A stretch of DNA of 64,000 nt from an uncultured Opitutia bacterium (lineage in GTDB: Bacteria > Verrucomicrobiota > Verrucomicrobiia > Opitutales > Opitutaceae). A program made the position numbers and the translations under genes. Shown one piece after another: positions 545-10,216 of this stretch (its first letter is position 1; each line of letters opens with the position of its first letter). The DNA is taken from NCBI GenBank assembly GCA_903902745.1, contig CAIUWA010000007.1:1-64000 (forward strand). The letters run 5' to 3'. The notes beneath the pieces were generated by a model. It was not told the DNA's origin. It was given only the letters and a program-made list of their open reading frames with translations, and searched no databases.

Positions 545-1732
545 ATGGCCAACAAAATGTCTCGCCGGCAATTCCTGGGCACCGCCGCCATCACGGGCGC
601 CGCACTTTCCGGCATGGGTAACGCCCTCTCCGCCGCGCAGGCCCCCCAGGGCGCTGCCGATTGGGATGAAAAAAACGGCCCGGCTCCGGCCGCGCCGGAT
701 GCCCCGCAGGCCCTGCCGCTGCAGCCGGGCGCCGTGCCCATCATCGACAGCCATATTCACCTCTTCGACCAAACCCGTCCCGTCTTCAGCGGCTACACGG
801 GCGGGCTGTTCTACCGGCAGGTGAACAAGCCGTCGACGCCCGCGGCGTATGCGGCGCTGGCGCGGCCCGCCGGAATCGTCGGCGCCATCGTGGTGGAATC
901 CGCCGCCCAGTTCATCGACGACAACCTCTGGTACCTGGAGGTCTGCCGCGACAATCCCTTCATGGTCGGAGTCTCGGGGAACCTCGATCCCGGCTCGACC
1001 GATTTCACCAAGTATCTGAACCACTTTCATCGCGACCCGCTCTTTCGCGCCATCCGCTCCAGCCGCTTCTACACCAAGGACGCCGGTGGCAAGTTGGCGC
1101 TCAATCCGACTCAGGTCGCCAACCTGAAGCTGCTGGCGGAGGCCGACCTGGCGCTGGACACCGCCAACCCCAGCATGGACCTGATGAACGCCAACGTGCT
1201 GCTGGCCGACGCCGCGCCCGACCTGCGCATCATCATGGACCACCTGCCCAGCTTCGATCCCACGCCCGAGAACCAGGCGGCCTACGACGCGGTGATCAAG
1301 GAGATGGCGGCGCGCCCCAACATCTTCGTCAAGCTCACCGAGGTCTATCATCCCAAGCCCGGCGACAACGGCATCATCGTGAAGAACTATGAGTTCCTGC
1401 GCGAGCGGCTGGAGTACTTGTTCCAGGCCTTCGGCGAGGACCGCGTCATGTTCGGCACGGATTATCCCAACAGCTACGGCGTGGCCACGATCCCCGAGGA
1501 GGTCGGCCTGATGCAGCAGTTCTTCTCCACCAAGACGCGCGCGCAGCAGGAGAAGTATTTCTGGCAGAACTCCTCGAGGATCTACAAGTGGGTCAAGCGC
1601 TCCGACGACCAGCCCACACCGCTCGCCCAGGGAAAACCCGCTCCGCCTCTGCCCGCCCGTGGCGGCGGAGGAGGCCGGGGAGGCCCAGGAGGTCCTGGTG
1701 GTCCGGGAGCGCCGGGCGGCGGAAGGCCCTAG
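545..1732 (+). CDS. Tat-exported amidohydrolase family protein
   Basis: A 395-residue metal-dependent hydrolase of the TIM-barrel amidohydrolase-2 type. The start at 545 is chosen because it gives a twin-arginine signal peptide (SRRQFLG at residues 6-12, then a hydrophobic stretch ending near SAAQA); upstream in-frame starts give no sensible N-terminus. A first metal-ligand motif, IIDSHIHLFD, follows the mature N-terminus; IIMDHLPS and MFGTDYP further on match the later histidine and aspartate ligand regions. The last 33 residues are almost pure Gly/Arg/Pro and are not part of the fold. The substrate cannot be read from sequence; members include lactonases and decarboxylase-like hydrolases. 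Confidence 0.85.
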   Translation: MANKMSRRQFLGTAAITGAALSGMGNALSAAQAPQGAADWDEKNGPAPAAPDAPQALPLQPGAVPIIDSHIHLFDQTRPVFSGYTGGLFYRQVNKPSTPAAYAALARPAGIVGAIVVESAAQFIDDNLWYLEVCRDNPFMVGVSGNLDPGSTDFTKYLNHFHRDPLFRAIRSSRFYTKDAGGKLALNPTQVANLKLLAEADLALDTANPSMDLMNANVLLADAAPDLRIIMDHLPSFDPTPENQAAYDAVIKEMAARPNIFVKLTEVYHPKPGDNGIIVKNYEFLRERLEYLFQAFGEDRVMFGTDYPNSYGVATIPEEVGLMQQFFSTKTRAQQEKYFWQNSSRIYKWVKRSDDQPTPLAQGKPAPPLPARGGGGGRGGPGGPGGPGAPGGGRP

Positions 1733-1840
1733 GGCTAAGGTCGAGCGGGATGGTCTCACGCGACCGGTCACGTCAACCCGTCACGCCAGAGCTTCAGCGG
1801 AGGCGGAAGCTTCAGCGGCGGCGGGGGTCGCGAAGTCGAT

Positions 1841-1867
1841 CTTGAGGTCGCAATTTGCGACCTCAAG
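1841..1867. repeat. Perfect 27-base palindrome
   Basis: Two perfect 13-base arms (CTTGAGGTCGCAA and its complement) surround one central base. Such a short-spaced perfect palindrome is typical of a protein-binding operator or a small mobile hairpin. It lies 110 bases downstream of the amidohydrolase and 300 bases before the ubiquitin-like locus. Function unknown. Confidence 0.8.
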
Positions 1868-1897
1868 TTTGCAACCTGCTTTTCAGTAGCGGCTACC

Positions 1898-1930
1898 GAA
1901 CTTGATGTTCCAACTTGGAATATCAAGTTC
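1898..1930. repeat. Second near-perfect palindrome
   Basis: The arms GAACTTGATGTTCCA and TGGAATATCAAGTTC are complementary except for one mismatch. It shares the TCAAGTT/AACTTGA motif with the palindrome 30 bases upstream, so the two look like a pair of related sites. Confidence 0.7.
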
Positions 1931-2044
1931 CGCCCCTCGTATCACGCGAAGCCGCAGTCGGACGGAGGCTGGGGTTCGATCCCTAAAAATAAAATCTTCG
2001 CGCACTTCGCGGCTTCGCGTGAACCAAGCTCCCGATCGGAATTA

Positions 2045-2116
2045 AACCACGAAGACACGAAGGTACGAAGATGGGACTTTCAGAGGTTTTCTTCGTCCCT
2101 TCGTGTCTTCGTGGTT
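2045..2116. repeat. Long inverted repeat, CCACGAAGACACGAAGG family
   Basis: Left arm 2045-2070 and right arm 2091-2116 are almost perfectly complementary over 26 bases. It is another member of the intergenic hairpin family of this window. Its right edge coincides with the point where the reading frame of the ubiquitin-like gene loses homologous sequence, so it may mark the 5' breakpoint of that locus. Confidence 0.85.
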
Positions 2117-2154
2117 AACATCCGTCCTCCGGCACTCGGCCCCGACAATACCCG

Positions 2155-2586
2155 GTGGGCGAGAACGACACGGTCGAGGCCGTCTTACAGCTGCTCATCA
2201 AAGACGGTAATCTCGGCAGCACCAAGTTGGAGGAGATCTTCCTCTTCGAGGAAGACTCCGACGACGAGCTGCCCAGCCATCACAAGATCACGCCCCAGCA
2301 CCACGGGAAGCGCTTCCACGCGCACACCTGCCGGCACGTTGAGGTTGTGTTCAAGTATGTCGATCAGCCACCGGTGGCACATTCCTTCCGACCGGGCGCG
2401 ACCATTCGAAAACTCATCAAGTGGGCCAAGGAGCACTTCAAGCTCGACCCGAAAGAAAAGTTTGACCTCCGCCTCAGCGCCGAAGGCGAGCCGTTGCCGC
2501 TGGACGCGCACATTGGCACCTACGCCGACCGCCACACCTGCAAGGTTACGGTCTATCTGACGCCGACCCACCGGATTAACGGATGA
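2155..2586 (+). CDS. Ubiquitin-like modifier protein, probably 5'-truncated
   Basis: A 143-residue protein from the only available start (GTG at 2155, no visible ribosome-binding site). Residues about 62-136 look like a ubiquitin beta-grasp domain: strand VEVVFKYV, hairpin, helix ATIRKLIKWAKEHF, then FDLRL and KVTVYL strands. The protein ends on a bare glycine (residue 143), the group an E1 enzyme would activate. Residues 1-45 (helix TVEAVLQLLIKDG, strand IFLFEE) resemble the second half of another beta-grasp domain whose first hairpin is missing, and the same frame stays open upstream to a stop at 2116-2118 inside the inverted repeat. I therefore infer an originally two-domain, ISG15-like modifier that has lost its 5' end. 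The next gene overlaps the stop (ATGA). Confidence 0.7.
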   Translation: MGENDTVEAVLQLLIKDGNLGSTKLEEIFLFEEDSDDELPSHHKITPQHHGKRFHAHTCRHVEVVFKYVDQPPVAHSFRPGATIRKLIKWAKEHFKLDPKEKFDLRLSAEGEPLPLDAHIGTYADRHTCKVTVYLTPTHRING

Positions 2587-3053
2587 TTCTCGACGAGGCA
2601 TGTTATCAGGAGCACGTCGCGGCTCCGTCATTTCAAGACGGAGTCGCGCGTGGCTGGTGGCTCGAGTGCCCGGCGGCCGCGCAATGGCCGCATGTCATCA
2701 TCAAGCTCATGCTCCCGCCGCGCATCAACAGCGCCGACTTCCTCCACCTTCGGTTTGAACTCTCCGGCTATCCCGGCGCGGGGCTCACTGCAACGCTCTG
2801 GGATATTGCCCGGAACGCGAAGCTAGAAGCCGGCAAGTGGCCCAAGGGCACGGGCGACGTCGCAAAAGTTTTTAGGACAGATTGGAACGACATGGTAGCA
2901 CTCTACGCGCCGTGGGATCGGCTGGCCTTCGTCGGCCACACCGACTGGCCGGAAAAACACCGCGGCCGCTGCTGGAAACCGACCCACACAATCGCCCACT
3001 ACCTTCGGTTCACCCGCGAGCTCCTCGACTCAGATGAATACCAAGGCTGCTAA
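2583..3053 (+). CDS. E2-like candidate in the ubiquitin-like locus
   Basis: A 156-residue protein whose start overlaps the modifier stop as ATGA. I do not recognise it outright. Its position between a ubiquitin-like gene and a JAMM peptidase gene is where E2-type conjugating enzymes usually sit, and the pattern fits a UBC fold loosely: strands (HVIIKLMLP, LHLRFEL), a YPG turn after them, a Trp/Pro-rich middle, and a cysteine at residue 130 in GRCWKP followed by a helix. Cys130 is the best candidate for a thioester cysteine. A metal-binding or adaptor role is an alternative; few His/Cys pairs support that. The E2 assignment is inference from context. Confidence 0.5.
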   Translation: MILDEACYQEHVAAPSFQDGVARGWWLECPAAAQWPHVIIKLMLPPRINSADFLHLRFELSGYPGAGLTATLWDIARNAKLEAGKWPKGTGDVAKVFRTDWNDMVALYAPWDRLAFVGHTDWPEKHRGRCWKPTHTIAHYLRFTRELLDSDEYQGC

Positions 3054-3495
3054 GCTCGAACTCGACCGCCTGATGTGGCGGCAACTTATGCTCGAGCTTT
3101 GGCGTCGTGGCGGCGGCGTCCGTGAGAGTGGCGCTTTCATCTTGGCTCCTAGGGACTCAATTCGGGCCGCGCACTTCGTCTACTATGATGACCTTGACCC
3201 AACTTGTCTCGAAGCCGGTTATGTTCGACTGAATGGAGGTGCCTACGTCAGCCTGAGTAACATCTGCGAGACCGGCGGCCTCCGCGTTATCGCTGACGTG
3301 CACACTCATCCGGGGAACTGGACAGGGCAGAGCCCCTCTGACCGCGCACATCCGATGATGTCTCGCGCGGGCCACGTCGCCCTCATCGTTCCACGGTATG
3401 CTCAAGGAAACCGAGTAGGCTTGTCCGGCGTCGGCGCGTTTGAATACCTTGGGAACGGTCGATGGCGGAATTGCCGGTCGGAGGTGTGCCTGTAA
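3034..3495 (+). CDS. JAB/JAMM metallopeptidase, deubiquitinase-like
   Basis: A 153-residue JAB/MPN+ domain protein. The complete JAMM signature is visible: Glu31 in ESGAF, then His90 and His92 in HTHPGNWTGQS, Ser100 and Asp103 in SPSD, with the exact spacing HxHx7SxxD. In this family a zinc ion held by these residues cleaves the isopeptide or peptide bond after the C-terminal glycine of a ubiquitin-like protein, so it would process or remove the modifier encoded two genes upstream. The gene overlaps the preceding one by 20 bases and appears intact and catalytically competent. Confidence 0.88.
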   Translation: MNTKAAKLELDRLMWRQLMLELWRRGGGVRESGAFILAPRDSIRAAHFVYYDDLDPTCLEAGYVRLNGGAYVSLSNICETGGLRVIADVHTHPGNWTGQSPSDRAHPMMSRAGHVALIVPRYAQGNRVGLSGVGAFEYLGNGRWRNCRSEVCL

Positions 3496-4337
3496 CCGCC
3501 ATGATGAACCCATCTACAGCCAATCGCCTGGCCATTGGCTTTGCCCGAGCATTTGGCATCTCATACGAAGAGGCCGAGCGGAGGCTTCGCTTGTTGAGCG
3601 TGCGCATCGTCGCAGACGCCGACACCTGCGCGCGGGCCTCGGGGCAGGCCGCCGTATTGACCGCGCTCAATACCGCTCACCGCGCGTTTCTCGGTGGGGT
3701 AGACCTTCAGTTGCCCACCGGCATTCCGCTTCGGCTACCAGTGCGTGGCATGAAGTCCCTTGACGAAGCCGTCTCCATCACCGCCTGCCGTCCATCGCTA
3801 GACCGAGAGCCAACCATTTCAATCTTTGTGACCGCACAAGCCGCAGGCGCCGGGCCAGACGACGTTCTCGTCCACTGCGACGGGTGGCGGGGCGGAGCGA
3901 GTGATGTTGCCAACCCGGCTGCATTCCAAGTAGGCGATGTGGATGACTTCTGCCTCGGCGGAATCTTCGCAGGAGCAGCCGCAGTGCACCGCGCTTTCGT
4001 GAAGGTGGCGCGCCTGCCGGCGCAATGTCTCGATGGGCCGTTTGGCCTCTCACTCTGGGAGCCCGGTAAGGATTGGCTGGCCCCTGTCACCGTCCGACAT
4101 TTGCACAATATCCCGACGAGATTCTGGATGCTTGGTCTCGGCCACCTCGGACAGGCTTCCATCTGGAATCTGGCGCTGCTCCCACATCCCAACCCGGCGA
4201 TAGTGGAATTTCTCCTGAACGATTTCGATATCATCGAGGCCTCCAATCATGGCACCGGGTTGCTATGTTCGCTGGACGACGTGAACTTGAAGAAGGCGCG
4301 CCACTGCGCTGACTGGCTCGAGCGGCTACCCACCTGA
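3462..4337 (+). pseudogene. E1-like ThiF-family activating enzyme, truncated at its 3' end
   Basis: The 291-residue product has an N-terminal region of about 215 residues of unknown fold, then the start of a ThiF/E1 Rossmann domain: MLGLGHLG (nucleotide loop, residues 223-230), FLLNDFDIIEASN (acidic strand that contacts ATP and Mg) and KKARHCADWLE. It stops about 70 residues into a domain that normally runs over 200, so the rest of the adenylation site and any catalytic cysteine are absent. After LERL (about 4325) the DNA is continuous with a hicA gene on the other strand, showing that the end was lost by rearrangement. The start could be 3462 or the ATG pair at 3501/3504 after the JAMM stop. 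Adenylation activity is unlikely. Confidence 0.8.
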
Positions 4338-4414
4338 TTGACCTGTCGGTAATCCCATTGCCGGCATAAGGCCGCTGCCAAGTCGCGCCCGTACAGGTCG
4401 CGCGGCAGTTTCAT
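4247..4414 (-). pseudogene. hicA-type mRNA interferase gene, truncated
   Basis: The reverse strand from 4414 encodes a 55-residue peptide beginning MKLPRDLYGRDLAAALCRQW, a HicA N-terminus, and runs to YRQVNQVGS (residue 30). There a HicA protein would continue into its conserved glycine-histidine region, but from about 4328 the sequence is simply the antisense of the truncated E1 gene until a chance stop at 4247. The conserved histidine is therefore lost and toxicity is not expected. The start overlaps the hicB stop (ATGA), the usual coupling in such pairs. Confidence 0.75.
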
Positions 4415-4614
4415 GCGAGCACTTCGTCGCGCACCAAGTGCAGGCGCACGCGGGCCGGGGCGGGCCGGTCGAAATAAAACGCCGTCACGGCCTCGCGCAC
4501 GTTGCGGCGCAGCTCATCCCAGGAGTCTGCCTGCGTGAAAATGCTTTCCCCGAGTGCCTCGGCGACAAAGCCGCCGTCGCCCTCCTGCGTGACTTGAAAA
4601 ACGAGTTCGTTCAT
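4411..4614 (-). CDS. hicB: HicB-like antitoxin
   Basis: A 67-residue protein (start ATG at 4614) with the compact HicB fold: strand NELVFQVTQE, GGFVAEALGESIFTQADSW, then helix DELRRNVREAVTAFYF. Such short HicB proteins bind and silence a HicA mRNA interferase encoded immediately downstream. Here the downstream hicA is broken by a rearrangement junction, so hicB is an orphan antitoxin. A longer open frame upstream exists but its N-terminus is low-complexity repeat sequence. Confidence 0.8.
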   Translation of the reverse strand: MNELVFQVTQEGDGGFVAEALGESIFTQADSWDELRRNVREAVTAFYFDRPAPARVRLHLVRDEVLA

Positions 4615-4664: not shown

Positions 4665-4800
4665 CCGCCTTCGCCCGGTTCGACAAGCTCAGGGCTACGG
4701 CGAGGCAAGGGGGCGGAGGCCGGACGCCGGACGCCAAGGGACAGTGGACCGGGGACGGGGGACAGGTTGAGCGGTCGGATGGGTGGATGATCCGATGGTC
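4665..4800. repeat. GGAC-rich spacer with CCGCCTTCGCC element
   Basis: The stretch begins with CCCGCCTTCGCC, then GGCTACGGCGAGGCAAG, and continues into repeated GGACGCCGGACGC and GGACCGGGGACGGGGGACAG units, ending in GATGG/TCGGATGG repeats. The same composite (TTCGCC..GCTACGGCGAGGCAAGCGGG plus GGAC-rich tract) recurs near 8660-8735 and 11493-11634, and the tract alone at 7828-7912. Confidence 0.7.
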
Positions 4801-4830
4801 TGATGGTCAGAGCGTCGGATGGCGACCTCC

Positions 4831-6417
4831 TCACATCTCGCGCCGATCGACATTCGGGATCTTCGTGTCCGGCAATGGCGTGCAACCGCGGGCTGTGAAG
4901 TCTTTGACGTTCTTCAGCACGATCGTCGGAACACCGGCGGCTTTCTGCGCTTTGACGTGCTGGAAGTCCGCGCCGCTCACGTCGTCGAGGACGAAAGCCG
5001 GCCGGCGGTCCTCCTGCATGAACCTGACCTCGACGTTGTTCAGCTCGATCCCCTTGGCGTGGCGGATGAAAAACCCGTAGGCGGGCAACAGGCCGAACAT
5101 GGATGGCTCGGGATACTCCTTCTCTTGCTCCGGGGTATCGAACGGCTCCCGCGTCGGCGCGCCAGCACCGCGACCACCGCGGCGCCCGCCTTGAACGAAA
5201 AAGAACGTATTGATCAGATCCGCCGGCTGCTGGGCCACCTGATCCAAAGTCAGGCCGCCGCGACTGAAGATGCGGATGTCGCTGAGCTTGATATCCTCCA
5301 CGTCGTGGCCGGGAATTCCGGTGATGATCGACGGATAACGTGGGTCGGCGTTGTAGACGACCACGTTGCTGATGCTAATGCGGCGCGCCGTGCCGATCGG
5401 CGTCCCCGCCGTCGCCCACATCATGCGGCTGCCCAGCCGGATGAAGATCGGGCTGTTCGTGACGTCCCGCATGGTGATGTTGGAAATCGTAATGTCTTCC
5501 AATTGCCCCCCGTCCACGCATTCGAGGGCCAGCCCGCGGCAGCAGTCGAACACCACGTTGGAGATCGTGATATTCTTGAAACCGCCCGCGCTGCCCGTGC
5601 CCATCTTGATGCGACCGGTGGCGCCATCGCGATCCGGCGCCAGCTTAAAGGTGCGCTTGAAGGTGCCATCGAGCAGCGAACCGACTTCGTAGCCGCTGAC
5701 CAGGCAATTGGTGATGGTTATATTCTCACAGGTGTACGCAATTCCTTCATCGCTGTTGGATTTCAGGCAAAGGCCATCGTCGATGGGCGAGTTGACGCTC
5801 GTGTTGGAGATTCTGATGTTATTGCCACCGACATCGATCCCGTCGCGGATGGTGTCCACCTTGACGTTGTCGATCGTCAGATTTTCCATTTCCACCACCG
5901 TGATCGCGGAGTGCCCGCCGTCCGCGACGGAGAAGTCGCGCAAGGTCACGTTGCGGCAGTGTTTCAGTCCGATCGCCTTGTCGCCATTGAGGGTGCCGGG
6001 GCTTTTTTGCCGGGTAAGAACATCCGTGCCGGTGATCAGGCCGCTGCCCAGGATCGAGACGTTTTCAAGGCCTACGCCCCAGATCAGGGCGCTCATGGTT
6101 TGGTCGATGGTGGAGGTATCCTTCGACGCTTTGATGACGCAGCCCGAGTCGAGCTGCAAAGTGATGTTGCTGCGCAGGCGGATCGAGCCGGTAAGGTAGG
6201 TTCCGGCGGGAAAGTACACGGTGCCGCCGCCGGCCGCCGCCGCCGCGTCGATCGCCCGGTTGATTGCGTCCCGGTCGGGCGTCGTACCATCGGCCTTGGC
6301 GCCGAACGCCTTGACATCCAAAACTGCGGCGCGCCCTTCGAGCGGCGCACCCAGTAAATGCGCCACAGCGGCGCAGCAAACGAGAATATTATTTTTTATA
6401 TGGCCTCCTAGGATCAC
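4831..6417 (-). CDS. Glycoside hydrolase family 28 (polygalacturonase-like)
   Basis: A 528-residue secreted right-handed beta-helix enzyme acting on pectin backbones. The N-terminus VKAFGAKADGTTPDRDAINR is the usual GH28 opening, and repeated ITISN-type coils follow. Catalytic-region motifs are IDDGLCLKS (Asp213/Asp214) and RIKMGTG (269-275); RDGIDVGGN stands where NTD is usual, and the GHG histidine motif is not evident (GYEVGSLLDG instead). The GTG at 6417 overlaps the stop of the upstream lyase gene (GTGA). A strong AGGAGG lies three codons inside this start, so initiation at a non-canonical codon further in is possible; the hydrophobic signal segment follows either way. A Gly/Arg-rich insert sits near residues 405-425. 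Confidence 0.85.
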   Translation of the reverse strand: MILGGHIKNNILVCCAAVAHLLGAPLEGRAAVLDVKAFGAKADGTTPDRDAINRAIDAAAAAGGGTVYFPAGTYLTGSIRLRSNITLQLDSGCVIKASKDTSTIDQTMSALIWGVGLENVSILGSGLITGTDVLTRQKSPGTLNGDKAIGLKHCRNVTLRDFSVADGGHSAITVVEMENLTIDNVKVDTIRDGIDVGGNNIRISNTSVNSPIDDGLCLKSNSDEGIAYTCENITITNCLVSGYEVGSLLDGTFKRTFKLAPDRDGATGRIKMGTGSAGGFKNITISNVVFDCCRGLALECVDGGQLEDITISNITMRDVTNSPIFIRLGSRMMWATAGTPIGTARRISISNVVVYNADPRYPSIITGIPGHDVEDIKLSDIRIFSRGGLTLDQVAQQPADLINTFFFVQGGRRGGRGAGAPTREPFDTPEQEKEYPEPSMFGLLPAYGFFIRHAKGIELNNVEVRFMQEDRRPAFVLDDVSGADFQHVKAQKAAGVPTIVLKNVKDFTARGCTPLPDTKIPNVDRREM

Positions 6418-7769
6418 TGGTTGGGGATTTCCACGGCGTAGACGTTGTTGGCGGTGCCCTTGAGGTGCACGGTCAGCACGATCCAGTGGAAATCGGGCGT
6501 CAGGTGGGGATTGGGTTCGATGTACTCGGCCTTCGGGTTTTCGTAGGTCCCGGAGAAATCGCAGATGCGCACGACGGGCACTTCCAGGGTCTTTGGGTCA
6601 CGCTGGTCGAGCCGGTAGATGCAGAGCCACGGGTTGGTATGCTGGAATCCATCGCCGACCGCCCACTTGGCGCCCGGGCCGATGGCGTAATGGATGGATC
6701 GATTGCTGGATCGGTTGGCGGCGGTGACGGTCGCGCCACCATAGGAAGACGGGGCGACCGACACGCCGCCGTAGGAATAGCGCGTCTCCACGCCGGTTTT
6801 CAGGTCCAGGTGGGCGAGCGCCCCCGCGCTGCTGATGTCGTACCAGACGGATTCGCCGTCGCGGTCCCAAAACTCATGCGTGATGCCCTCGGCCTCCAGC
6901 GCCGCTCCCGTCCGCGGCATGGTCACCTGCGCCGTCGTCAAGTCGAGCAGGCGCAGGCGATTCTTGATGTGCACCGAGACAAAGCCCTCGTGGATGAAGA
7001 TCGCCCGGTTCGGATTCGTGGGCGAGCCCTGCACGTGTCCCAGCCAGTTGTTCTCCTTGTCCTCGAACACCACGGCGAGCTTTCCGGAGTCGATGTCGAC
7101 CGAATAGATGGCGTTGTGCCGCTGCATGTGTTCGTACGCCTCGACCCAGTCGACGCGCCGCAGATGCGGGTCTTCCATCACGGGCTTGGCCTTCACCAGC
7201 GCGGCGTGCTCCTCGGCGAGCCCATCGCAATAGGCGAAGAGCAGTTTGCTTTCATCCGCGGTGAAGGCGAAGCCCGCACCTTGATCCAGCCGGCCGTGCG
7301 GGACCGTCGCGATCTTGCGGGTCACGCCGGTGTCCAGGTTCAGCAGGAAGATGTCGTCGCCCCGGTCGAACGCCGCGCTCCGCCGATGCGGCAGCACGAC
7401 GAGGTGCGCGCCGGTCTGCTGGGTGAGTTGGCGGATTTCGCCGGTCCGGAGGCTCAAGGCGAAGTAACCCTGGTCCTGGCCGCGCTTGCCGCTGAAGAGC
7501 ATCAGGTCGCCGTCGGCGGTGAAGATGTTCTGATGGAAATAGAACACGCTGGCGCTGTCGAAGCCGCTCGTGAGGTTGACGACCCGGGTTTGGGAGGTGG
7601 GATCCCGCCAGGCCACTTCCGGGTTGCTGGCATACTTTTGCCAGATCGCACCGATGGTCCCGGACGAAGGCGGGGGCGTGGCGGACTCGGCTCCAGATCC
7701 AGTGAGAGCAACTCCGAAAGCCAGGGCGAGGCCGGCGAGAAAACGGATGGGGTAGGGGGGAGATTGCAT
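6414..7769 (-). CDS. ogl: Oligogalacturonate lyase (PL22)
   Basis: A 451-residue beta-propeller lyase that cuts short galacturonate oligomers to unsaturated monomers by beta-elimination. The start at 7769 is chosen because it gives a clear signal peptide (hydrophobic FLAGLALAFGVALTG) immediately before the mature protein; the longer open frame upstream is spacer repeat. Family features include FHQNIFTADGDLMLFSGKR, repeated blade motifs (NLDTGVTRKIA, DIDSGKLAVVFED) and ITHEFW, with the histidines expected for metal binding. The gene is translationally coupled to the GH28 gene downstream, so the pair forms a pectin-fragment operon. The exported location is unusual compared with cytoplasmic Ogl of enterobacteria. 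Confidence 0.88.
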   Translation of the reverse strand: MQSPPYPIRFLAGLALAFGVALTGSGAESATPPPSSGTIGAIWQKYASNPEVAWRDPTSQTRVVNLTSGFDSASVFYFHQNIFTADGDLMLFSGKRGQDQGYFALSLRTGEIRQLTQQTGAHLVVLPHRRSAAFDRGDDIFLLNLDTGVTRKIATVPHGRLDQGAGFAFTADESKLLFAYCDGLAEEHAALVKAKPVMEDPHLRRVDWVEAYEHMQRHNAIYSVDIDSGKLAVVFEDKENNWLGHVQGSPTNPNRAIFIHEGFVSVHIKNRLRLLDLTTAQVTMPRTGAALEAEGITHEFWDRDGESVWYDISSAGALAHLDLKTGVETRYSYGGVSVAPSSYGGATVTAANRSSNRSIHYAIGPGAKWAVGDGFQHTNPWLCIYRLDQRDPKTLEVPVVRICDFSGTYENPKAEYIEPNPHLTPDFHWIVLTVHLKGTANNVYAVEIPNQ

Positions 7770-7827
7770 AGGGTGAATAGGTAGACGCGCGGCGTGGGGA
7801 AAAGGTGTGGGATTGGGGCGGGTGGGC

Positions 7828-7912
7828 GGAGGACAGAGGACAGAGGACAGAGGACGGGAGTCGGGCGAGGGGGGACGGATGCCAGACGCCGGAGGCCGGA
7901 CGCCGGAGCGGA
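7828..7912. repeat. GGACAGAGGACAGAG tandem spacer
   Basis: Short tandem units GGACAGA repeated about four times run into GGACGGGAG and then GCCAGACGCCGGAGGCCGGACGCCGG. It resembles spacers at 4699-4800 and 11493-11634. It lies upstream of the oligogalacturonate lyase gene and before the divergent kinase gene, so both promoters must be inside or next to it. Confidence 0.75.
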
Positions 7913-7967: not shown

Positions 7968-8477
7968 ATGCCACGCTGTCTCGTCATCGCCGGGCCTAAC
8001 GGGGCGGGCAAAACTACCTTTGCCCAGGAGTTTCTCCCCCGGGAGGCGGGTATGCTGCATTTTGTGAATTCCGATTTGCTGGCCGCCGGCCTGTCGCCGC
8101 TGGCTCCCAACGCTGCCCGGGTTGCGGCCGGCCGGCTGTTCCTCCGCGAACTCGACCGGCTCGCAGCGCAACGGGAAGATTTTGCGTTCGAAAGCACGCT
8201 CAGTGGAACCGCTCATCTGGGACGACTCGCCCGCTGGCGCTCCTCCGGCTATCGCGTCGAAATTGTTTATCTAAAACTGACGGAAGTGGAGGTGGCCTTG
8301 CAAAGGATCGCGGGACGAATCCGGATGGGCGGGCATGGCGTGCCGGAAACGGATGTCCGCCGTCGGTTTGCGCGCAGCTGGGTGAATTTCATCCATCGCT
8401 ACCGGCCTCTCGCGCATCGAAGCTGGGTGTTTGACGTCGACGGGCCCGGTCACATTCTGCTGGAGGAAAATCCATGA
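7968..8477 (+). CDS. Zeta-toxin-like P-loop kinase
   Basis: A 169-residue P-loop protein. The Walker A motif is GPNGAGKTT (residues 9-17), followed by FVNSDLLAAGLSP (the acidic substrate residue of zeta toxins and related kinases) and FESTLSG. Later arginines (RIAGRIRMGGHGVPETDVRRR) form a lid typical of the family. Known zeta toxins phosphorylate UDP-N-acetylglucosamine; whether this chromosomal form is toxic cannot be told from sequence. It overlaps a 55-residue gene at its stop (ATGA). Confidence 0.82.
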   Translation: MPRCLVIAGPNGAGKTTFAQEFLPREAGMLHFVNSDLLAAGLSPLAPNAARVAAGRLFLRELDRLAAQREDFAFESTLSGTAHLGRLARWRSSGYRVEIVYLKLTEVEVALQRIAGRIRMGGHGVPETDVRRRFARSWVNFIHRYRPLAHRSWVFDVDGPGHILLEENP

Positions 8478-9577: not shown

Positions 9578-10216
9578 CTAGTCGCTGCCGCGATGAAATC
9601 CGATTTTGCGATCATGATCGGGGCCGGGAGCGGCGAGCATGTTGCGCAAGGTGCTGACAATATCCGCGATCACAGCATCGTGGCCTTCCAATTTTTGCTC
9701 AAGCTCTGCGAGCTTGGCGGCAAATTCGCGATGGGTCGCGAGCACCTCGCGGAGACGAACAAAGGCGCGCACAACAAAAAGGCCCATTTCAACGGCACGG
9801 GGAGAATGGAGAACTTGGGCGGCCATGAGCGCTCCGTGCTCGGTAAAAACCCATGGGAGATAGATGGCGCCACGGTGCTGGTGTGAACTCATCGCAGATT
9901 GCGATGAGTTATGTTTATCTGATTTTACATCAGTCACTTCCATGCTTGGACTCGCGGCTTGCGCCTTCAAGTCGGCGAACTCCTGCTGGCTGAGCTGAAA
10001 GCGAAAATCTCCCGGAAAACGGCCGCCGTTGCGCTTGACCGCTTCATTGAACCGGAACGTCGGCACGCCGTAAAGTGCCGCTAGGTCGGAATCGAGGAGC
10101 ACGCGCTGCCCACGGATCAACAGGATGCGCTGATCGAGCTCAGCGGATGAAGGGCCCCCATTGGGCGCATCGACCGATGTCTTTCGTCGCCGGGAATCAT
10201 GATTATGGCCGCGCAT
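9578..10216 (-). CDS. ORF6N-domain protein
   Basis: A 212-residue protein with the ORF6N (KilA-N related) DNA-binding domain: ILLIRGQRVLLDSDLAALYG, then TFRFNEAVKRNGGRFPGDF and FQLSQQEF, and later WVFTEHGALMAAQVL followed by a helical C-terminus (FAAKLAELEQKLEGHD) likely to dimerise. The domain is common in phage antirepressor-like proteins and in scattered bacterial mobile loci. The gene stands alone between two direct copies of a 90-base hairpin repeat, which suggests it moved in or has been maintained as a cassette. Confidence 0.85.
   Translation of the reverse strand: MRGHNHDSRRRKTSVDAPNGGPSSAELDQRILLIRGQRVLLDSDLAALYGVPTFRFNEAVKRNGGRFPGDFRFQLSQQEFADLKAQAASPSMEVTDVKSDKHNSSQSAMSSHQHRGAIYLPWVFTEHGALMAAQVLHSPRAVEMGLFVVRAFVRLREVLATHREFAAKLAELEQKLEGHDAVIADIVSTLRNMLAAPGPDHDRKIGFHRGSD

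What the first reader, a model, noticed from the sequence alone, without database searches (positions are those of the whole stretch)
2155..4337. Decayed bacterial ubiquitin-like conjugation operon
Four overlapping genes encode a glycine-ending Ubl, an E2-like candidate, an intact JAMM peptidase (HxHx7SxxD seen) and an E1-like ThiF protein cut short. These are the components of known bacterial ubiquitin-like systems such as the Bil/ISG15-like antiphage operons; the order Ubl, candidate E2, JAMM, E1 differs from the Bil order as I remember it. The middle genes look intact while both ends are broken, suggesting a recently inactivated system or one reduced to a Ubl-plus-peptidase module.
Basis: partly seen in the sequence, partly recalled or inferred. 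Interest (0 to 1): 0.85.

Follow-up and report, generated by a model that had tools for sequence, protein, structure and literature searches.

The report
Broken bacterial ubiquitin-like defence operon
This is the leftover of a known bacterial anti-virus operon that works like our ubiquitin system: its first gene has lost its start and its last gene has been cut off at a point where a neighbouring toxin gene is cut too, so it very probably no longer works.

Summary

Both ends are broken. bilA lacks its start and roughly 17-20 N-terminal residues, beside a repeat palindrome. bilD stops at residue 288 of about 450, before the E1 catalytic cysteine. There it meets a convergent hicA toxin gene cut after codon ~30 of 79, so one deletion joint explains both cuts. 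The missing pieces were not found elsewhere in the assembly.

BilC keeps its JAMM residues. BilB is an open frame but has Trp at the predicted catalytic Cys. That alone does not prove decay: 9 of 28 other BilB proteins also lack this Cys, and two contain no Cys at all.

Verdict: a dead copy of a known system, of modest interest. The recurring Cys-less "E2" in Bil operons is the more interesting lead.

The parts
2155..2586 (+). bilA remnant: tandem ubiquitin-like protein without its start and leading strands; second Ubl domain and C-terminal Gly kept; homology may reach back to about 2131
   Evidence: PADLOC BilA 1.7e-32, residues 3-143 on profile 23-162 of 162; frame read from 2119 has no start codon before GTG 2155; AF2 model and fold search
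2583..3053 (+). bilB: E2-like protein, open frame, Trp at the predicted catalytic Cys position
   Evidence: PADLOC BilB 6e-45, Pfam DUF7665, alignments
3034..3495 (+). bilC: JAMM/MPN peptidase, motif residues kept
   Evidence: PADLOC BilC 8.5e-54; E, HxH, S, D present
3462..4337 (+). bilD 5' part: E1-like protein cut at residue 288; the last 3 residues and stop come from the joint with hicA
   Evidence: PADLOC BilD 1.4e-68, profile 3-278 of 453; family match ends at 4325
4319..4327 (.). joint of two truncated convergent genes, bilD (+) and hicA (-)
   Evidence: BilD match ends at 4325; HicBA DNA homology ends at 4324-4326; HicA protein match reaches 4319
4319..4414 (-). hicA remnant: residues 1-32 of a 79-residue HicA toxin
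   Evidence: the intact relative L069 is Pfam HicA_toxin 1.1e-8
4411..4614 (-). hicB-like antitoxin partner of the hicA remnant, frame intact
   Evidence: 84 and 86% identical homologues in G009 and G036; no Pfam match, so the HicB name rests on the pairing with HicA
2037..2124 (.). palindromic repeat (35-nt arms, 89% complementary) directly upstream of the bilA remnant
   Evidence: partly similar stretches elsewhere in the genome

Best explanation
A Bil anti-phage operon that has been inactivated. In an intact system the JAMM protease BilC can mature the tandem Ubl BilA, the E1 BilD adenylates its C-terminal glycine and takes it on a cysteine, and the E2 BilB passes it to target lysines (established for relatives; review passage, and recalled). 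Shown here: bilA lacks a start codon where relatives have it and lacks the leading strands of its first Ubl domain; bilD lacks its C-terminal third with the E1 cysteine; the bilD cut is a joint with a truncated convergent hicA gene. Inferred: one deletion removed the 3' parts of bilD and hicA; a second rearrangement beside a repeat removed the bilA 5' end; acquisition was horizontal (patchy presence); no conjugation is possible. BilC may still fold and cleave.
For: Family matches and order. Truncated BilD against 28 of 28 other BilD rows that keep the CG cysteine. HicBA homology ending at 4324-4326 where BilD homology ends at 4325. No second piece of HicA, and no significant match to the BilD C-terminal part, in the own genome. 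BilA model without leading strands in domain 1. No BilC or BilD match at E <= 0.001 of Bil type in same-genus G002, and none of BilC in G001, which is only 72% complete; in G002 the flanks are kept at 93-95% and the interval differs.
Against: No stop or frameshift inside 2155-4325, and the leave-one-out count of deviations at conserved columns lies within the range of relatives, so decay inside the genes is not shown. The genome is a 52-contig assembly; reads were not seen. No expression data.
Confidence: 0.87

Rival explanations
1. A reduced module: Ubl plus JAMM (with a non-catalytic E2) kept for another job without conjugation.
For: BilC and BilB frames are open, JAMM residues are intact, deviations at conserved columns are not raised, and BilA domain 2 is predicted to fold.
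Against: bilA has no start codon at the usual place and an incomplete first domain; the truncated bilD and hicA share a joint; no other genome was seen with this short form (BilC in 6 of 252 family genomes; the strong ones read, L047-L049, carry a full-length BilD); the window's end branch is long, 1.44.
Confidence: 0.07
2. The broken ends are assembly errors and the organism holds an intact operon.
For: Draft genome of 52 contigs; repeats lie beside the 5' end.
Against: Contig C52's end and C7's start overlap by exactly 141 bp, which suggests an assembly word of 141, so a false join without a long shared repeat is unlikely (inference); the missing halves were not found elsewhere in the assembly, 98.18% complete.
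Confidence: 0.04
3. A working system in which another E1 of the cell serves the Bil Ubl.
For: A further ThiF-type match exists at G000:C24:99443-99670 (E 5.1e-4).
Against: That match covers only the common Rossmann part (profile 206-286), as expected of housekeeping MoeB/ThiF; BilA has lost its start and BilB its predicted Cys.
Confidence: 0.02

Closest known systems
Bil (bacterial ISG15-like, BilABCD) anti-phage system
   Same: Four homologous genes in the same order; PADLOC models match all four; tandem Ubl ending in Gly, E2-like, JAMM, E1-like
   Different: bilA without start and leading strands; bilD without its C-terminal third and E1 cysteine; BilB with Trp at the predicted catalytic Cys
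PolyUbl operons with an inactive E2/RWD-like domain (rows 6e of Iyer et al. 2006, PMC1779556, passages read)
   Same: Bacterial tandem Ubl with an E2-fold protein lacking the Cys
   Different: There JAB is typically fused to E1; here JAMM and E1 are separate genes and the proteins match Bil models
CBASS type II Cap2/Cap3 (E1-E2 fusion and JAMM; passages)
   Same: E1-, E2- and JAMM-like enzymes in phage defence
   Different: A Ubl gene is present, E1 and E2 are separate, and none of the four proteins gave a Cap2/Cap3 or CD-NTase match in PADLOC

Membership tests
Bil system (working) | Genes in the order bilA-bilB-bilC-bilD | tested here: met
   order of names in a review passage
Bil system (working) | BilA with two complete Ubl domains | tested here: not met
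   Domain 2 beta-grasp present, domain 1 without its leading strands; profile match starts at 23 of 162
Bil system (working) | C-terminal glycine on BilA | tested here: met
   Ends THRING
Bil system (working) | BilB E2 with a catalytic Cys | tested here: not met
   Trp at the aligned position; but 9 of 28 other BilB lack it too, so it may not define the family
Bil system (working) | BilC JAMM peptidase residues | tested here: met
   E, HxH, S, D, as in 27 of 27 other BilC rows
Bil system (working) | BilD E1 with active adenylation domain and catalytic Cys | tested here: not met
   Cut at residue 288; CG cysteine absent, present in 28 of 28 other BilD rows
Bil system (working) | Conjugates BilA to targets and protects against phage | not testable with these tools
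   Needs bench work
HicBA toxin-antitoxin (neighbour) | Full-length HicA toxin domain | tested here: not met
   Only residues 1-32 of 79 remain; intact HicA in L069

The most novel reading that the evidence does not exclude
A sizeable minority of Bil operons, and perhaps this one before it broke, use an 'E2' that cannot carry a thioester at the expected place: Cys is replaced by Trp, Tyr, Leu or Ala in 9 of 28 relatives, the state changes at least 5 times on the tree (window included), and two BilB proteins have no Cys at all, while the E1 cysteine (28 of 28) and the JAMM residues (27 of 27) do not vary. Such systems would conjugate straight from E1 with BilB as a structural adaptor (as UEV/RWD proteins act), or use the Ubl without conjugation.
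Probability: 0.4. Interest if true: 0.6.

Novelty: new member of a known kind. Interest (0 to 1): 0.3.

Why it matters
It shows one way a mobile defence system is lost: a joint that also broke a neighbouring toxin gene, in an interval whose content differs within the genus. The comparison it prompted suggests that thioester chemistry on the E2 is dispensable in part of the Bil family, which would bear on how ubiquitin-like cascades began and can be tested directly with complete operons that are already sequenced.

Tried and rejected
dN/dS: not possible. blastn of bilB-bilC (window 2583-3492) against plasmids found no match; tblastn of BilC against the phage collection found none; the scan of viral contigs with the window BilD found none, and the scan with a BilD alignment found one distant operon (L096, 34% identity).

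Displaced bilA 5' end: tblastn of 27 BilA N-termini (first 60 residues of each aligned row) against window 1501-2400 found nothing convincing (best E 0.03, out of place).

Other Bil E1 proteins among 95 relatives: 28 of 95 genomes match the BilD model at E <= 0.001, the window's own included. The other 27 match only within profile 161-324 with E no better than 6.1e-7, and the model also rings in 4 of 14 control genomes, so I read them as generic ThiF/MoeB proteins (inference). The BilC and BilB models ring in 0 of 14 controls.

BilB structure: the AF2 model is weak (pLDDT 65.8, worst around the active site). Its best Foldseek rows are 8tz0 and 8tyz, bacterial E1-E2-Ubl, at E 0.075-0.16; VIA-align lists mostly E2 and UEV proteins, top Z 6.2, below the level the tool calls safe. 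No PDB chain matches BilB by sequence. So the catalytic position rests on sequence: it sits where the E2 Cys pattern (recalled by me) would put it, and the spacing C-x5-E-x-H in several BilB fits Cys138, Glu144 and His146 of the review passage; the review's His151 spacing does not fit.

BilA model: the five models range from pLDDT 68.5 to 84.1; only 6 sequences were in the alignment.

Papers: two primary Bil papers, looked up by DOIs recalled by me, are not held. In searches I saw listings, and I read passages of PMC11354881, PMC12355090 and PMC1779556; in what I saw, none mentions Cys-less BilB. Three listed papers that hold 'bacterial ISG15-like' were not opened (PMC10286901, PMC13373217, PMC11364771). 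It may well be in print.

Further plasmid hits were not fetched: 19 plasmid regions were read, 10.

The host's family name (Opitutaceae in the finding) was not tested.

Full report
What is there. The four ORFs at 2155-2586, 2583-3053, 3034-3495 and 3462-4337 overlap on the + strand. PADLOC identifies them as BilA (1.7e-32, profile 23-162 of 162), BilB (6e-45), BilC (8.5e-54) and BilD (1.4e-68, profile 3-278 of 453). Pfam gives DUF7665 for BilB (3.9e-38) and only sub-threshold ThiF, Prok-JAB and TUG-UBL1 hits for the others; NCBIfam gives nothing. A review (PMC11354881, passages read) names BilA as Ubl, BilB as E2, BilC as JAMM DUB and BilD as E1, so the order here is the ordinary one.

The 5' end. 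In four relatives looked at in detail (L022, L048, L059, L066) 22-25 residues run from the likely start Met to the segment that aligns with TVEAVL of the window; from GTG 2155 the window has 5. The window's frame has a TAA at 2116-2118 and no ATG, GTG or TTG before GTG 2155, which lies inside or at the edge of the homologous part. A palindrome with 35-nt arms, 2037-2124, partly repeated elsewhere in the genome, ends just before it. AlphaFold2 (best model pLDDT 84, 6 sequences) gives a complete beta-grasp for domain 2 and a first domain that begins at its helix. Foldseek's best hits are linear di-ubiquitin and ISG15, with 8tyx (bacterial Ubl-deubiquitinase complex) at rank 24; VIA-align hits span mainly residues 58-143.

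The 3' end. BilD homology ends at 4325. On the other strand a hicB-like gene (4614-4411) is followed by the start of hicA. DNA homology to the intact pairs of G036 and G009 (86 and 84% identity in the antitoxin protein) ends at 4324-4326. The G009 partner is a Pfam HicA toxin (1.1e-8) of 79 aa; its residues 1-32 match window 4414-4319 and nothing else in the genome matches at E <= 10. The BilD C-terminal part, searched with the L048 protein, has no significant match in the genome (best E 0.33). Two convergent genes cut at one point are most simply explained by one deletion (inference).

Lineage. In the same-genus genome G002 the flanks occur at 95% (439-1754, contig C87) and 93% (4747-7864, contig C64). 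C87's end and C64's start share 55 bp; joined there, the interval would be 2113 bp, with two ORFs that look to me like a YefM/YoeB-type toxin-antitoxin pair (no family search made). Against the window's 2992 bp it shows only one 41-bp repeat (85%, inverted) and chance-level matches. The join is an inference, since a repeat marks both contig ends. BilC was found in 6 of 252 genomes of the family: the window's own, three strong (G124, G160, G162) and two weak (G122, G225); BilB in 3 of 387 genomes drawn across the phylum: the window's own, G124, and a weak match with stops. Presence is patchy, which I read as horizontal acquisition.

The enzymes. BilC keeps E, HxH, S and D, as do the 27 other rows with BilC; the E1 CG cysteine is present in 28 of 28 other BilD rows and is lost in the window. 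BilB has Trp where most relatives have Cys (ALYAPWDR against ALYAPCDR). Counting the 27 other rows and L096, Cys is present in 19 of 28 other BilB; the rest are Trp in 4 (L047, L089, L090, L092), Tyr in 2 (L061, L063), Leu in 2 (L062, L095) and Ala in 1 (L066). L062 and L066 contain no Cys in the whole protein, and the six Cys-less proteins that I scanned, of nine, are called BilB by PADLOC at 5e-41 or better. On a BilC+BilD tree of 28 rows the state (Cys or not) changes at least 5 times, and the window sits in a supported group of 8 rows with Cys-bearing L048, L049, L022, L023, L024 and L025 and with Leu-bearing L095. So the Trp may be a lesion or a lineage trait; it cannot be counted as proof of decay. 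Cautions: for L066 the annotated BilD starts late (profile 111), and in that tree two long branches meet (L026 with L066), so its place is unsure.

State of the interior. No stop or shift occurs in 2155-4325. A leave-one-out count of deviations at columns at least 90% conserved puts the window within the range of relatives (BilA 0 of 4, BilB 1 of 15, BilC 2 of 32, BilD 3 of 25, the last among the higher values), which fits a recent break. The window's end branch is long (1.44 against a median of 0.44), which fits relaxed constraint or sparse sampling. dN/dS could not be done.

Conclusion. The finding is an inactivated Bil operon: a known kind of system in an ordinary state of loss. It fails two tests of a working Bil system (complete BilA, E1 with Cys), so I file it as a remnant of one, not as a functioning member. 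The recurring Cys-less BilB is given as the most novel reading; inactive E2/RWD-like domains in other bacterial Ubl operons were described in 2006 (PMC1779556, passages read), so the idea has a precedent.

Noticed in passing
BilB genes of L047, L061, L062, L063, L066, L089, L090, L092, L095: BilB without Cys at the predicted E2 active site in Bil operons that keep the E1 cysteine and JAMM residues; L062 and L066 BilB hold no Cys at all.
   Followed up: partly
window 1-about 140, minus strand: Looks like the 5' part of a tmRNA gene cut by the contig end: the matching stretch of L045 (G002:C87) holds a tmRNA at 1459-1811, and C52's end overlaps the window start by 141 bp. ARAGORN on the window alone finds none.
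   Followed up: partly
L046 (G002:C64), about 200-750: The G002 version of this interval carries two ORFs that look like a YefM/YoeB-type toxin-antitoxin pair; no family search was made.
   Followed up: no
window 7968-8477, + strand: Zeta-toxin/AAA-like protein (Zeta_toxin 1.1e-7, AAA_33 4.4e-8).
   Followed up: no
window 9578-10216, minus strand: Protein matching PADLOC candidate PDC-S05 models (7.4e-39).
   Followed up: no
L096 (IMG/VR contig IMGVR_UViG_2911336950_000002), 3419-6293: A four-gene Bil operon with a Cys-bearing BilB on a contig classed as viral.
   Followed up: partly
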